Assembly: GCA_944324915.1 (NCBI GenBank)
Contig: CALUYD010000002.1
Location: 62,001 to 126,000, forward strand
Source of the DNA: Candidatus Gastranaerophilales bacterium
GTDB lineage: Bacteria > Cyanobacteriota > Vampirovibrionia > Gastranaerophilales > Gastranaerophilaceae
DNA: 64,000 nt
Direction of reading: 5' to 3'
Shown here: one piece after another, positions 25,857 through 32,636 of the stretch
Numbering within the stretch: the first letter of the stretch is position 1
Layout: every line of letters starts with the position of its first letter
The notes under the pieces: generated by a model
Told to the model about the DNA's origin: nothing
The model's input: only the letters and a program-made list of their open reading frames with translations
Databases searched by the model: none
Translations under genes and position numbers: made by a program

Positions 25857-25951
25857 AAGATATTACTCCTTTTAAATCTATAATATCATATTTTGTGAAT
25901 TTTTGTAAAAAATAACCCAATTTGATTAATTTTAAGCTCTAAATAGCCGAT

Positions 25952-25969
25952 TAACCTTATATAAGGTTA
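25952..25969. promoter_or_regulatory. 18-bp perfect palindrome at the start of the RelA/SpoT-domain gene
   Basis: TAACCTTATATAAGGTTA is a perfect palindrome five bases before the ATG at 25975. It contains a TATATA element (possible -10) and AAGG (possible ribosome site), so binding or self-pairing there would block expression. Function inferred. Confidence 0.65.
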
Positions 25970-25974
25970 GAAAA

Positions 25975-28527
25975 ATGTCTTTTGATTATTCAAAATTTAA
26001 TATCGGCTTAAATGGTGTTAATGGTGTCTCATCAACATCTTCAAGCAGTGCTTTATCTGAAGCAGAAGAAAATTATTTTTCTCAAAATTCAGATACTAAT
26101 AGCGTTGCGCTTGATGTTAAATATGATATTGAAGATGAAAATATACAAAATATTATTTATAAAACCTTAAACAATCAAATAGTTGAATTGGAAAATCAAT
26201 ATAATGAATCGAAAAACTCAAACGGTTGGATATCAGGCGCTTGGGATTGGGTAAAAAATACTTTTAATTTTGGCGCTTCTTCAAATAAAGCGCTTGATGA
26301 AATAAATAAAGCAAAAGATGAGCTTGAAAAATTTGAAAATAAAGAATCTGATTTAAAAGAGGTTTATAAAAATATAACAGGTAGAGAGTTAACTTCTGAT
26401 GAAATCGAGCTTTTAGCTAGTGGCGAGCTAACTTTAAAAGATTCAACCTTAGCAGGTGAAAAGCTCTATAATTACACACAAGGTCAGCAAATGTCAGTCG
26501 ATGTTGTGGCTGATATAGCTTCAGGTATAGTGTCTGTCGGCGTTGTGGCACTAGGGACTACTTTAGGAATTTGCGCTGCTCCATTTACAGCAGGAGCTTC
26601 ACTTGGAATGATAGGAGCAGGAATCGGTTTAGCTGCAACATCAGGTGCAGTGGTTAAGACTGCCCTAAAAGCATCAGATTGTATAGGAAATGAAAAGGAA
26701 TATACTTTAGCTGATTTTGGATATGACACAATAACAGGTAGTATAAACGGTGCTATGGGTCCAATTTCAAATGCTCTAGGTGGTGCTGGCGGTACTGCTG
26801 TAATGAAAGCGCTTGGTTGCGAAGCATTAGAAACCACAACAAAGAGTCTTTTAGGGCAAACATCAGCAAAATTGTTATCAAGAGCGGTGGATTGTGCCAT
26901 AGATGGCGGTTTATCAGGGGCTGCAGACGGTTTTTCCCGTGCTTTAGCTGAGGGTCGAATTGATGATATTCCAAAGGATATGTTAGTTAATTCTCTTGGT
27001 GGTGTTGTAGCTTCTCCTTTGATTGATGGCGGTTTTAATCTTTTTTCTAAAATCGGAAATAAAATCGGAAGTAGTATTATTAGCTTGCAAAGCGATGTTT
27101 TAGCTGATACATTAGCAAAACAAACAAGCGATTTATTGCAGGCTGAAATGGCTCAAGAAGTAATTGAGCAGGCAAATAAAGAGCTTGGTGAAGCTATATC
27201 TGATGAAGTAAGCGATACAATCCAAAAAGAAGTTGTTGAACAAGCTACGCAAGAAATTACACAAACTGTTTCAAAAGAAACAAGTGAAATAATACAAGAA
27301 GAAGCAACACAACAAATAGTGCAAGAATTAAGCGATGAAGTAATTAAAGAAAATGCGCAAAAAAAATTACTATCTACACTTGATTTTGAAAAATTAAAAT
27401 TATCTCAAGATAACCTAAATGAAGCCTTGGATAGCGCTTATTATTTAGCTGAATTGTATGAAGAATCTAGTGCTGTTGCTACCGATGATATTGAAAGAAT
27501 TTTCTCTCAATTAAAATCTGTTAAAGATGTGGATGGTAGACCCAAGAGCTTTGAATCTACATTTAAGAAGATAACAAATAAATTTCAAGACGGTAAAATT
27601 TCATCTCTTGATGTTGATACTGCTTATGAAGCAGTCAGTGACGCTCTTGGTACAAGAGTGCAGATGAAAAGCATTGGTGTAAATGAAGCAAAAGAAGTTA
27701 TTGAAGAAGCCTTCAGCGATACTGATGTAACTTATGAACAATTTATAGCTTATATGAATGGCAATAAAGCCGTTTGTCCTGAAGAAATTGTTAATATTAT
27801 AGAAGGTTGTGAAAATTATGTTGTAGATGAGCTTAAAGCAATTCAAAACAATGAAGTTTATGAAGCCTTGCTAAATGCAATAAAAAATAATGAAATTACA
27901 ATAACAGAATTTAATAATTATGGAAATGGCGAAATTTCTTATTTTACAAATAGTCAACTTGCAGCAATAGCTGAAACTTATTATGAAGTAACGGGTGAAA
28001 AATTAAAAGTAGCTACAAAAAAACAAAGTAGTCAAATTGGCTTAATTGATGAATTTAACTCCGGAGAGACTCAATATGCAATTATTAATAATGATAAAGC
28101 TATTAAATCTTCCGGTTATGGTTCAGCTCAAATGAATATTCTTCATGAATTGCCGGATAATTCAATAGGTCTTGGTGAATTGCAAATCAGAGGTACGGAA
28201 TTAAATGCAGTTGCTGATGTTGAACATATTCCTTACGATATAAGAACAGGAAAAATAAGTAAAAATGATCCAAAATATTCTTCTGTTTACAAAGTAGTAA
28301 AAAGTTTATCAAATGATGCTTATAAAAAGTATAATGAATATTTAAATCAAGTGTATAAATATACAAGGCTTAATGAGCTTGGTTTAATGCCAAGCAGTGA
28401 TAATGTATCTGATTTAATTATGAAAGAACCTAAAATACAAGATTTTATGTCTGAATTTGGACTTAGCGATGAAGAATTGTACAAATTGAGCATAGAAGGA
28501 CTTAGTGAATTAAAAAAAGCTAAATAG
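25975..28527 (+). CDS. large multidomain protein with C-terminal RelA/SpoT-like nucleotide pyrophosphokinase domain
   Basis: 850 residues, not a known named protein. Ser-rich N-terminus (1-45); charged helical part (46-165); long Gly/Ala-rich hydrophobic block (about 170-365) like membrane-inserting regions of polymorphic toxins; coiled coil rich in Glu/Gln/Thr (about 375-465). The remaining part carries RelA/SpoT synthetase landmarks: GRPKSFESTFKKITNK (521-536), SDALGTRVQM (555-564; D556, R561), IKSSGYGSAQMNI (710-722) and GELQIRG (734-740; E735) followed by EHIPYD. About 145 residues are inserted between the second and third motif, and the usual GYRxxH histidine is not conserved. No HD hydrolase domain. 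Could make (p)ppGpp or a related alarmone or modify RNA, as known for toxSAS/Tas1-type toxins. Immediately followed by a small gene. Confidence 0.7.
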   Translation: MSFDYSKFNIGLNGVNGVSSTSSSSALSEAEENYFSQNSDTNSVALDVKYDIEDENIQNIIYKTLNNQIVELENQYNESKNSNGWISGAWDWVKNTFNFGASSNKALDEINKAKDELEKFENKESDLKEVYKNITGRELTSDEIELLASGELTLKDSTLAGEKLYNYTQGQQMSVDVVADIASGIVSVGVVALGTTLGICAAPFTAGASLGMIGAGIGLAATSGAVVKTALKASDCIGNEKEYTLADFGYDTITGSINGAMGPISNALGGAGGTAVMKALGCEALETTTKSLLGQTSAKLLSRAVDCAIDGGLSGAADGFSRALAEGRIDDIPKDMLVNSLGGVVASPLIDGGFNLFSKIGNKIGSSIISLQSDVLADTLAKQTSDLLQAEMAQEVIEQANKELGEAISDEVSDTIQKEVVEQATQEITQTVSKETSEIIQEEATQQIVQELSDEVIKENAQKKLLSTLDFEKLKLSQDNLNEALDSAYYLAELYEESSAVATDDIERIFSQLKSVKDVDGRPKSFESTFKKITNKFQDGKISSLDVDTAYEAVSDALGTRVQMKSIGVNEAKEVIEEAFSDTDVTYEQFIAYMNGNKAVCPEEIVNIIEGCENYVVDELKAIQNNEVYEALLNAIKNNEITITEFNNYGNGEISYFTNSQLAAIAETYYEVTGEKLKVATKKQSSQIGLIDEFNSGETQYAIINNDKAIKSSGYGSAQMNILHELPDNSIGLGELQIRGTELNAVADVEHIPYDIRTGKISKNDPKYSSVYKVVKSLSNDAYKKYNEYLNQVYKYTRLNELGLMPSSDNVSDLIMKEPKIQDFMSEFGLSDEELYKLSIEGLSELKKAK

Positions 28528-28538
28528 TGTGATATAAT
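28511..28538 (+). promoter_or_regulatory. possible internal promoter for the 28553 gene
   Basis: TTAAAA at 28511-28516 and perfect TATAAT at 28533-28538 are 16 bases apart, over the end of the RelA/SpoT-domain gene. It would give the small downstream gene its own supply of mRNA. Confidence 0.45.
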
Positions 28539-28552
28539 CAAAAGGGTAAAAT

Positions 28553-28990
28553 ATGAACGTAAACAATAACAAACAAAATTATACATTAAATTTTAAAGCA
28601 CTCACAAAAGAGCAAATTATGGAATTACCGCAAGAAGAACGAATTAAAAATATGGTAATAAAGGCAAAAGATGCTATTTATGATTATAGCTTAAGAGGTC
28701 TGCCCGAAAATGGTAAATTTAAAGACTATTCTATTGCTTTTAGCGTGCCTTGTACAAATAATCTTGGTGTATTAGAAATAGGGTATGATTCTAAAGACCC
28801 TATAAATAAAAGATATTTATCTGTTGGTGTTCATCATAAAAATTCCGATAGAATGGAATTTAGTTTGATTATGACCGGAACAAAACAAGAAATTTTAGAT
28901 AGATTAAAATCTAAGGATGATGTTGAAGAATTGGCTCAAACTGTTAAAGAATTGTCTGATAGAACGGATGATTATTATTCAAGTTTGTAA
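28553..28990 (+). CDS. hypothetical 145-residue protein, candidate partner/immunity for the RelA/SpoT-domain protein
   Basis: No recognised family. Starts 25 bases after the RelA/SpoT-domain gene with an AAAGGG ribosome site. The soluble, acidic protein has an N-terminal YTLNFKALTKEQ (the F-K-A resembling the F-x-G motif of other unknown proteins here), a central region rich in beta strands (YSIAFSVPCTN, LEIGYDSKD, YLSVGVHHKN, MEFSLIMTG) and a helical C-terminus. Size, solubility and position fit an immunity protein or antitoxin, but that is positional inference only. Confidence 0.65.
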   Translation: MNVNNNKQNYTLNFKALTKEQIMELPQEERIKNMVIKAKDAIYDYSLRGLPENGKFKDYSIAFSVPCTNNLGVLEIGYDSKDPINKRYLSVGVHHKNSDRMEFSLIMTGTKQEILDRLKSKDDVEELAQTVKELSDRTDDYYSSL

Positions 28991-29023
28991 TTATAGCCTA
29001 ATTATCCAATTTTTATTTTTTAA

Positions 29024-29060
29024 CTCCCGTGCAAAAATCTAAAAAGATTTTAAAAGGGAG
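29024..29060 (+). promoter_or_regulatory. hairpin sequestering the superoxide reductase ribosome site
   Basis: CTCCC (29024-29028) pairs with GGGAG (29056-29060), and AAAATCT (29034-29040) with AGATTTT (29045-29051), separated by a small internal loop. GGGAG is the core of the GGGAGG ribosome site of the gene starting at 29066. Confidence 0.5.
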
Positions 29061-29065
29061 GAAAT

Positions 29066-29443
29066 ATGACACATTTATCAGAATTGTACAAATGCAGAGT
29101 TTGTGAAAATGTAGTTGAAGTTGTACGTCAAGGGGTAGGAACATTAGTTTGCTGCGATGAGAGCATGATACTTTTAGAAGAACATCAAGCTAACATTGAT
29201 GATGCTCACTATGCTCATATTGAACATTTGGATGATATTACAAAGAAAATTGAATTTAATCATCCAATGACAAAAGAACATTATCTTGAATTTATTGAAG
29301 TTGTATCAAATGACGGTAAATATATAAAAAGAAAACATTTAAAAATTGATGAAAAACCGGAATTAACTTTCAAATGTGAATGCAGGGAAGGTTTTTATGT
29401 AAGAGTTTATTGTAATATTCATGGAGTAATGGTAACAAAATAA
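29066..29443 (+). CDS. dfx: desulfoferrodoxin (superoxide reductase, 2Fe type)
   Basis: Reduces superoxide to hydrogen peroxide without releasing oxygen. 125 residues in two domains: a desulforedoxin rubredoxin-like iron site (C10, C13, C29, C30) and a neelaredoxin domain with the His4Cys iron site, seen as AHIEHLDD, FNHPMTKEHYLEFIEV and CNIHG (C116, H119). The usual EKHVP motif is replaced by AHIEH, which removes the standard lysine near the active iron. Followed by a ferritin-like gene sharing one base of the stop/start, so iron and superoxide handling are coupled. Confidence 0.93.
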   Translation: MTHLSELYKCRVCENVVEVVRQGVGTLVCCDESMILLEEHQANIDDAHYAHIEHLDDITKKIEFNHPMTKEHYLEFIEVVSNDGKYIKRKHLKIDEKPELTFKCECREGFYVRVYCNIHGVMVTK

Positions 29444-31748: not shown

Positions 31749-32636
31749 TTATGTTTCAAGAATATAAATTCCGCATAAACCCCTTGTGATTTGCTCTTCG
31801 GTAAAACCGTTTGTAAAGCCATCTACCATGTGTTGTTTATAATAATTTTCAATATTTGGGTCGTTTACGATATATTTTCCATCTTCTGTTTTCCCTGCAA
31901 TTACAATAAAATGTCCGGCATCGGTAAATAATGAACTGCTATTCATTCTTGCAATTACAGGTTTCCCTGATTCAAGTGCTTCATCTAGGTTTGTTTTGCC
32001 ATTCTCATTTAATTCTTGACAAGCAATACCCCAACCTTCATAAGTTGTCAACTTTAATCCAAGATTTTTAATACCTGCATGCATAGCAGATGCCGGATTA
32101 TCACCTCTATAACCATTGGTTAGCATATCGGGCGTTATTTCTTCACCTGTTAGGTATGAAGCAACCATTGCAAGGCTTGTAATTCCACAGCCTGAACTTC
32201 TTATAGTTCCTGTTGCAAAAGGTTGAGTGTATGTAGTTTGAAAATATTGCGGAACATCAGAACGATTGTTGAAACTTTCATAATCATACATACTGTATAA
32301 TTGTTGATAAAATTTTAAATTTTGTTCGTTATCAACCGTAGACAAAAATTCGCTTAGGGTTTGGTTGTTCTTTTGGTATTTTTTATTATACTTTTCAAAG
32401 TAATCAAGTGCGGAAAGATTTAGAGTTTCTTGTTCTTCTTCATTTTTTGCTTCTTCTAGCGCGTCTAGGTATTCATTATCTTGAGATAACACTTCTTCTT
32501 GTGTTGTTTTTGGGGTTGTGTCTGTTATATCGTTATTTGGTATTACAGATACTTGAATGTTATCCATGGTTTTACTAAGCCTTTGGATATTAGAAAGAAT
32601 AGTTGTATTATTGGTATTAATATTATTTTGTCCCAT
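31749..32636 (-). CDS. papain-like C39 family (Peptidase_C39_2) protein
   Basis: 295 residues. The first ~120 are low-complexity Asn/Thr/Glu rich without a signal peptide; the catalytic domain follows with Q130 or Q133 (VPQYFQ, oxyanion), C150 (IRSSGCGITSLAMVAS), H242 (DAGHFIVIAG) and D259 (IVNDPN). This is the layout of C39-like double-glycine-type or phytochelatin-like cysteine peptidases. No ABC transporter is fused or adjacent, so it is not a bacteriocin exporter. Absence of a signal peptide suggests export by another route or a cytosolic role. Confidence 0.85.
   Translation of the reverse strand: MGQNNINTNNTTILSNIQRLSKTMDNIQVSVIPNNDITDTTPKTTQEEVLSQDNEYLDALEEAKNEEEQETLNLSALDYFEKYNKKYQKNNQTLSEFLSTVDNEQNLKFYQQLYSMYDYESFNNRSDVPQYFQTTYTQPFATGTIRSSGCGITSLAMVASYLTGEEITPDMLTNGYRGDNPASAMHAGIKNLGLKLTTYEGWGIACQELNENGKTNLDEALESGKPVIARMNSSSLFTDAGHFIVIAGKTEDGKYIVNDPNIENYYKQHMVDGFTNGFTEEQITRGLCGIYILET

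What the first reader, a model, noticed from the sequence alone, without database searches (positions are those of the whole stretch)
25975..28990. Large membrane-active-looking protein with a cryptic RelA/SpoT domain, plus small partner gene
The C-terminal third (residues about 521-755) keeps the synthetase landmarks: R522/K524-S525 motif, D556 and R561 (SDALGTRV), K711/GYGS, and E735-L-Q-I-R-G. The usual histidine of GYRxxH is lost and about 145 residues are inserted between motifs 2 and 3. Upstream lie a 190-residue Gly/Ala hydrophobic block and a coiled coil, as in polymorphic toxins. A 145-residue gene of unknown family follows 25 bases later and has its own TATAAT. RelA/SpoT-type toxins (toxSAS, Tas1) are known, but not, to my knowledge, in this architecture in this lineage. 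It may be a new alarmone or RNA-modifying toxin with an immunity protein.
Basis: partly seen in the sequence, partly recalled or inferred. Interest (0 to 1): 0.82.

Follow-up and report, generated by a model that had tools for sequence, protein, structure and literature searches.

The report
Swappable toxin with alarmone-synthetase payload
A gut bacterium carries a two-gene cassette whose big protein joins a reusable front half to an enzyme domain of the RelA/SpoT (alarmone-making) family, nearly always followed by a small partner gene, which is the layout of a weapon with its antidote; the idea is known from other bacteria, but this enzyme variant, its front half and its partner look new.

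Summary
ORF 25975-28527 (850 aa) ends in a RelA/SpoT-type pyrophosphokinase domain. Its landmarks are nearly invariant in 46 homologues, its profile finds SasA/RelQ/RelP in the PDB, and its AlphaFold model (pLDDT 90) matches small alarmone synthetases (Z 11-12; unrelated folds 5). The guanosine-sensing His of syn3 is a nearly invariant Gln, and a conserved insert of about 120 residues separates syn2 from syn3. The 145-aa partner follows this domain in 42 of 46 loci, and all 42 partners found in 826 kb sit there. The front half occurs on other proteins with other payloads. At the same chromosomal site one congener has the same front half with an ADP-ribosyltransferase payload and a different small gene, two have an unrelated two-gene cassette, and 19 have an empty site. 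Best reading: a polymorphic toxin with a toxSAS-like payload and cognate immunity gene. Exported alarmone-synthetase toxins are known (Tas1/Apk1, Apk2, EAS), so this is a new variant of a known kind, found so far only in Gastranaerophilales-type genomes. Export route, acceptor, toxicity and immunity are untested. The partners' N-terminal "NFKG" tag is unexplained.

The parts
25860..29035 (+). whole cassette (toxin gene + partner) inserted between the RHH/amylase-like genes and the desulfoferrodoxin gene; ends approximate
   Evidence: DNA alignment to empty sites in 8 congeners: left flank matches to about 25857-25911, right flank from about 28994-29080
25975..28527 (+). 850-aa modular protein (putative polymorphic toxin)
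   Evidence: ORF; homologues
25975..26154 (+). Ser/Asn-rich N-terminal tail (residues 1-60); candidate export signal, function not shown
   Evidence: sequence; no Pfam family over this stretch at E up to 1
26482..27069 (+). Gly/Ala-rich hydrophobic block (residues 170-365), part of the reusable N-module
   Evidence: homologues with other C-termini
27067..27414 (+). Glu/Gln-rich, coiled-coil-like linker (residues 365-480)
27415..28524 (+). payload module (residues 481-850) with synthetase (SAS/RelA-SpoT) fold
27538..27570 (+). syn1: R522-x-K524-x3-S528-x3-K532 (ATP-donor side by homology)
   Evidence: 45-46 of 46 homologues
27640..27657 (+). syn2: D556-A-L-G559-T-R561
   Evidence: D 44/46, R 43/46
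27712..28074 (+). family-specific insert of about 120 residues between syn2 and syn3, with conserved N648-Y649-G, Y656, Q661
   Evidence: compared with YwaC/SasA; conservation
28105..28137 (+). syn3: K711-x2-G714-Y715-G-S-A-Q719-M-N721; Gln replaces the usual His
   Evidence: Q 44/46, Y 45/46
28177..28191 (+). syn4: E735-L-Q737-I-R739
   Evidence: E 46/46, Q 46/46
28222..28254 (+). syn5-like E750-H751-x2-Y754-D755-x4-K760
   Evidence: 46/46 for E, H, Y
28553..28990 (+). 145-aa partner, putative immunity protein; predicted alpha-beta4-alpha-alpha fold; residues 1-15 low confidence
   Evidence: downstream of 42 of 46 payload domains; model pLDDT 84.5

Best explanation
A polymorphic toxin-immunity cassette. 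The N-module (tail, Gly/Ala hydrophobic block, coiled coil) is a reusable export/translocation part. The C-terminal 370 residues are the payload, a RelA/SpoT-type 3'-pyrophosphokinase. It should bind ATP with R522/K524/S528/K532 and Mg2+ with D556/E735, and transfer pyrophosphate to the 3'-OH of an acceptor stacked on Y715, most likely a small adenine or guanine nucleotide. This would drain the nucleotide pools of a neighbouring cell. The 145-aa protein most likely binds and blocks the payload in the producing cell and its kin. Shown here: domain identity and fold, catalytic-residue conservation, modularity, payload swap at one site, and strict pairing with the partner. Inferred: activity, toxicity, acceptor, export and immunity.
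For: Synthetase motifs are conserved in 46 homologues. The profile hits SasA, RelQ and RelP-type chains. The AF2 model (pLDDT 89.9, pTM 0.88) matches SAS chains with Foldseek probability 1.00, Z 11.7 to RelP, 11.2 to the exported synthetase 8vx3, 10.6 to CapRel and 8.7 to the toxin Tas1, against 5.1 for the first unrelated fold. 42 of 46 payload ORFs are followed by the partner, and all 42 partner ORFs in 826 kb are so placed; of the exceptions one is cut by a contig end, one is followed by two short frames that look like a broken partner, and one is catalytically degenerate. Payload and partner distances correlate, r 0.89, 0 of 2000 permutations. Payloads sit on different N-termini in proteins of about 300-4355 aa. 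N-module homologues carry other payloads, e.g. an ADP-ribosyltransferase exoenzyme, E 1e-18. At the same amylase/desulfoferrodoxin site G017 has the same N-module (48% aa identity over residues 6-488; 68% DNA) with the ADP-ribosyltransferase and a different small gene, while 19 congeners have the two flanking genes only 86-460 bp apart. The genome has its own separate 740-aa RSH frame, so housekeeping (p)ppGpp is covered.
Against: No known export or trafficking domain was found in the N-module, and there is no signal peptide by eye. No activity or toxicity data exist. Partners often carry an N-terminal NFKG-like tag that also occurs on unrelated proteins in this genome, which is odd for a purely cytosolic immunity protein. 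In a few relatives the payload lies inside a giant protein rather than at its C-terminus.
Confidence: 0.75

Rival explanations
1. The partner is not an immunity protein but a payload-specific chaperone/adaptor (or co-exported factor), and the large protein is an effector aimed at non-kin cells, possibly eukaryotic cells of the gut.
For: Partners often carry an N-terminal Asn-rich NFKG-like tag shared with unrelated proteins. The own genome has flagellar-type type III export genes, with two full FlhA and FliF/FliE/FliH/FliP, and no T6SS sheath VipB. Payloads on related N-modules include an ADP-ribosyltransferase.
Against: The partner tracks the payload domain, not the N-module; N-module proteins with other payloads lack it. 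Class I type III chaperones are typically acidic (my knowledge), but partners are near neutral (mean net charge +0.8), and the predicted order of elements differs.
Confidence: 0.2
2. An intracellular toxin-antitoxin or phage-defence module of the toxSAS/CapRel type that pyrophosphorylates tRNA and never leaves the cell.
For: Fold match to CapRel, Z 10.6. Short relatives of about 450-500 aa with a partner exist. No export domain was recognised.
Against: The shared N-module with swapped payloads, and the ADP-ribosyltransferase at the same site. The payload is strongly acidic, net -24 here and mean -12.6, unlike what I would expect of a tRNA binder. No PADLOC match.
Confidence: 0.15
3. A catalytically inactive RelA/SpoT-like fold used for nucleotide binding or structure.
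For: Loss of the syn3 His; sub-threshold Pfam score.
Against: All donor-site and catalytic residues (R, K, S, K, D, E, Q) are kept in 44-46 of 46 divergent homologues. Apk2, an active (p)ppApp synthetase, also lacks the SxH motif (PMC12226406).
Confidence: 0.05

Closest known systems
Tas1/Apk1-Tis1 (P. aeruginosa T6SS effector, (p)ppApp synthetase; PDB 6ox6)
   Same: SAS-fold payload at the C-terminus of a delivered protein with an immunity gene next to it; Z 8.7
   Different: No PAAR/T6SS part here and no VipB in the genome; extra insert of about 120 residues; partner not similar to any PDB chain by sequence
Apk2-IapK-Aph1 (MuF polymorphic toxins of temperate phages; PMC12226406)
   Same: Polymorphic toxin with adenosine 3'-pyrophosphokinase payload; syn3 departs from the guanosine-type SxH (GxN there, S/A/TxQ here)
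   Different: No MuF domain and no phage homologues; only one downstream partner, no pyrophosphohydrolase gene next to it
Exported alarmone synthetases, EAS (PMC12691689; PDB 8vx3)
   Same: RSH synthetase domains on export modules, some with an adjacent immunity gene; fold Z 11.2
   Different: None of the export domains listed there (WXG/LXG, XopAD, MuF, DUF4157, PAAR/Rhs) nor a signal peptide was seen; that paper's text mentions neither cyanobacteria nor Melainabacteria
toxSAS toxin-antitoxin modules FaRel2, CapRel, PhRel (PMC11782079)
   Same: SAS-fold toxin paired with a neutralising protein; CapRel Z 10.6
   Different: There the toxin is small or fused to its antitoxin; here it sits on a large modular protein; no pZFD-like antitoxin recognised
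RelP/RelQ/SasA housekeeping small alarmone synthetases
   Same: Best fold and profile matches
   Different: Those are about 200-aa stand-alone enzymes with syn3 GYxSxH

Membership tests
RelA/SpoT synthetase (SAS) superfamily | syn motifs RxK..S..K, DxxGxR, GY, ExQxR, EH..Y | tested here: met
   invariant or nearly so in 46 homologues
RelA/SpoT synthetase (SAS) superfamily | synthetase fold | tested here: met
   AF2 pLDDT 89.9; SAS chains probability 1.00 and Z 11-12
RelA/SpoT synthetase (SAS) superfamily | score above the Pfam PF04607 gathering cut-off | tested here: not met
   22.2 bits (26.6 for the domain alone) against 27; membership rests on motifs, profile and fold
(p)ppGpp synthetase (RSH type) | syn3 SxH that recognises guanosine | tested here: not met
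   Q719 in 44 of 46; role of SxH from PMC12226406
(p)ppGpp synthetase (RSH type) | makes (p)ppGpp | not testable with these tools
   needs biochemistry
polymorphic toxin | conserved N-module with interchangeable C-terminal payloads | tested here: met
polymorphic toxin | small gene directly downstream, specific to the payload | tested here: met
   42 of 46, and 42 of 42
polymorphic toxin | recognisable secretion/trafficking domain | tested here: inconclusive
   no Pfam match in the N-module; may be an undescribed module
polymorphic toxin | toxicity neutralised by the partner | not testable with these tools
   needs experiment
Apk2 (MuF) | N-terminal MuF domain | tested here: not met
   no such Pfam match at E up to 1
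Apk1/Tas1 | PAAR/T6SS delivery | tested here: not met
   no PAAR in the protein; no VipB in a 99.98% complete genome
Apk1/Tas1 | Tis1-type immunity protein | tested here: inconclusive
   6ox6 not among sequence or fold matches of the partner; absence from those lists is not exclusion
EAS | exported from the cell | not testable with these tools
   no signal peptide seen; route unknown
tRNA-targeting toxSAS (FaRel2, CapRel) | pyrophosphorylates the tRNA CCA end | not testable with these tools
   the payload's acidity argues weakly against

The most novel reading that the evidence does not exclude
The nearly invariant Gln in place of the guanosine-sensing His, together with the conserved 120-residue insert (NNYG...Y...Q) between syn2 and syn3, defines a synthetase class that pyrophosphorylates an acceptor other than GTP/GDP or ATP/ADP, delivered through an undescribed export signal of gut Gastranaerophilales.
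Probability: 0.2. Interest if true: 0.8.

Novelty: new variant of a known kind. Interest (0 to 1): 0.57.

Why it matters
It would extend antagonism by alarmone synthetases to non-photosynthetic gut cyanobacteria, where I found no such weapon described in the library searched. It supplies a clear family of about 46 aligned payloads with intact catalytic residues but a different acceptor-site signature, a new candidate immunity family, and a new reusable N-module that already shows other payloads. The payload swap and the empty sites at one chromosomal position make the toxin-immunity reading directly testable.

Tried and rejected
Phage and plasmid origin: no payload homologues in IMG/VR, phage or plasmid records. 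NCBIfam, PADLOC and PHROGs: no meaningful match. Partner family: no meaningful Pfam or PDB sequence match; structure hits (PUR-alpha/whirly-like, Z at most 6.9) are too weak to name. Partner's own promoter: not above chance. Repeats at the cassette ends: nothing that stands out. T6SS: VipB absent. "Orphan" partners in G010 and G022 turned out to sit next to payload domains. The DUF445 and other weak Pfam hits in the coiled-coil region were taken as composition artefacts. The genome-contig scan used the single sequence and found only near-identical copies, so presence outside the phylum was not tested with the profile.

Full report
What is there. The window holds ORF 25975-28527 (850 aa) and, 25 nt later, ORF 28553-28990 (145 aa), both on the + strand. 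Pfam sees only a sub-threshold RelA_SpoT match at residues 521-598 (E 1.8e-4); nothing matches the 145-aa protein. NCBIfam, PADLOC and PHROGs add nothing useful.

Is the RelA/SpoT domain real? Yes. Relatives of the C-terminal 370 residues were found in related genomes and aligned. The family profile retrieves SasA/YwaC (E 4e-7), RelP-type and RelQ chains from the PDB, with syn1-2 and syn3-5 aligned in order. Two de novo repeat proteins also appear in that list and are short-repeat artefacts. Sixteen of 27 members hit PF04607 (best 2e-9). The AF2 model has pLDDT 89.9 and pTM 0.88. Foldseek's first 32 hits are SAS/RSH enzymes, and structural Z is 11.7 for RelP, 11.2 for the exported synthetase 8vx3, 10.6 for CapRel and 8.7 for Tas1, against 5.1 for the first unrelated fold.

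Active-site anatomy. In 46 aligned homologues (the window and its near-identical copy included) R522, K524, K532, E735, Q737, E750, H751 and Y754 are invariant, and S528, D556, G714 and Y715 are kept in 44-45. The residue equivalent to the guanosine-sensing His of GYxSxH is Gln in 44 and Asn in 2. In Apk2, an active (p)ppApp synthetase, this motif is GxN instead of SxH (PMC12226406), so loss of the His does not mean loss of activity. An insert of about 120 residues relative to SasA lies between syn2 and syn3 and has its own conserved residues (N648, Y649, Y656, Q661). The payload is acidic (net -24; family mean -12.6), which I read as favouring a nucleotide over tRNA as acceptor; this is inference.

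Modularity. Payload homologues sit on proteins of about 300-4355 aa with different N-termini. N-module homologues (residues about 6-480) sit on other large proteins without the payload; one ends in an ADP-ribosyltransferase exoenzyme domain (E 1e-18, above cut-off), another matches ABC1 kinases, and two (L063, L068) show an HELGH motif by eye. The payload domain was found in 124 of 386 genomes of the phylum, nearly all of one family. Named records of the two closest relatives are Candidatus Gastranaerophilales MAGs.

The site. The cassette lies between an amylase-like gene with a small RHH gene and a desulfoferrodoxin-like gene (named by eye). In 19 congeners the two flanking genes are 86-460 bp apart. 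DNA alignment of eight of these joins window position about 25857-25911 to about 28994-29080. In G017 the site carries the same N-module (48% protein identity to residue 488) with the ADP-ribosyltransferase payload and a 96-aa downstream gene. In G002 and G020 it carries an unrelated 430-486-aa protein followed by a 116-138-aa gene. G016 has both an occupied (C6) and an empty (C51) site and is probably a mixed MAG. This is a cassette hot spot with payload exchange, as expected of polymorphic toxins.

The partner. Of 46 payload ORFs, 42 have the partner directly downstream (from short overlaps to about 350 nt), and all 42 partner ORFs in 826 kb are in that place. Of the four exceptions one is cut by a contig end, one (L148) is followed by two short frames that look like a broken partner, one (L150) is followed by a 122-aa gene of no recognised family, and one (L145) is catalytically degenerate and lacks a partner. 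Partner and payload distances correlate (r 0.89; 0 of 2000 permutations); linked genes share history, so this alone does not prove interaction. The predicted partner fold is alpha-beta4-alpha-alpha (pLDDT 84.5) with only weak matches.

Export. I found no signal peptide by eye and no known trafficking domain. The genome has two full-length FlhA genes, with FliP, FliF, FliE and FliH among their neighbours, several TolC-type proteins and no VipB. I cannot tell which, if any, route is used.

Comparison with what is known. RSH synthetase payloads on T6SS, T7SS, T3SS, MuF and eCIS modules are described (PMC12691689; PMC12226406), and toxSAS antitoxins block either the acceptor or the donor site (PMC11782079). 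The present system works like these but fits none of the named subfamilies: no PAAR, MuF, LXG, XopAD or DUF4157 domain was recognised, syn3 differs, there is a large insert, and the partner has no recognised relative. Hence: new variant of a known kind.

Unresolved. The partner's Asn-rich N-terminus ending in an NFKG-like motif recurs in many partners, in the small gene behind the ADP-ribosyltransferase (MNFQSS), and at codons 9-13 of at least four other proteins of this genome. If it is an export tag, the simple picture of a cytosolic immunity protein needs revision. Confidence: synthetase fold with an intact donor site 0.95; polymorphic toxin with payload-specific immunity 0.75; small-nucleotide acceptor about 0.6.

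Noticed in passing
L223:1471-2865, L225:555-1535, L230:930-1538, L236:924-1547 (own genome); L061:3414-3704; many partner genes: A short N-terminal tag, M[KRQN][ILV]N...[NS]F[KQTS][GSA], ends at about codon 9-16 of otherwise unrelated proteins; possibly a lineage-specific sorting or export signal.
   Followed up: partly
L248:1233-3095, L249:1063-2775: In G002 and G020 the same chromosomal site holds an unrelated two-gene cassette (430-486 aa plus 116-138 aa) with no meaningful Pfam match; perhaps another effector-partner pair.
   Followed up: partly
L061:3414-7298 (G017): Same N-module with an ADP-ribosyltransferase exoenzyme payload and a 96-aa downstream gene at the equivalent site.
   Followed up: yes
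L068:217-5019 (own genome, contig 29): A second N-module protein of 1600 aa in the same genome with an HELGH motif near its C-terminus, suggesting a metallopeptidase payload.
   Followed up: no
L145:6087-6977 and L150:6987-7940: Short (296-317 aa) divergent relatives of the payload. L145 lacks the insert, the GY motif and a partner and sits beside nadD-, yqeK- and recR-like genes; L150 keeps most motifs but has Lys for S528 and Asn for Q719.
   Followed up: partly
L058:4631-11764, L059:2073-15140: Giant proteins (2377 and 4355 aa) carry the payload domain in the middle, not at the end; still followed by the partner gene.
   Followed up: partly
L148:9332-9711: The partner gene behind a complete N-module plus payload protein in another genus appears broken into two frames.
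   Followed up: no
L216:7896-14524 and L215:2891-8928 (own genome): Two separate full-length FlhA/SctV genes, one next to fliP (and fliQ/fliR/flhB-like genes by eye), the other with fliF, fliE, fliH and a lytic transglycosylase.
   Followed up: partly
window 31749-32636 (-): C39/C70-like cysteine peptidase, with no signal peptide noticed, near the cassette; possible effector.
   Followed up: no
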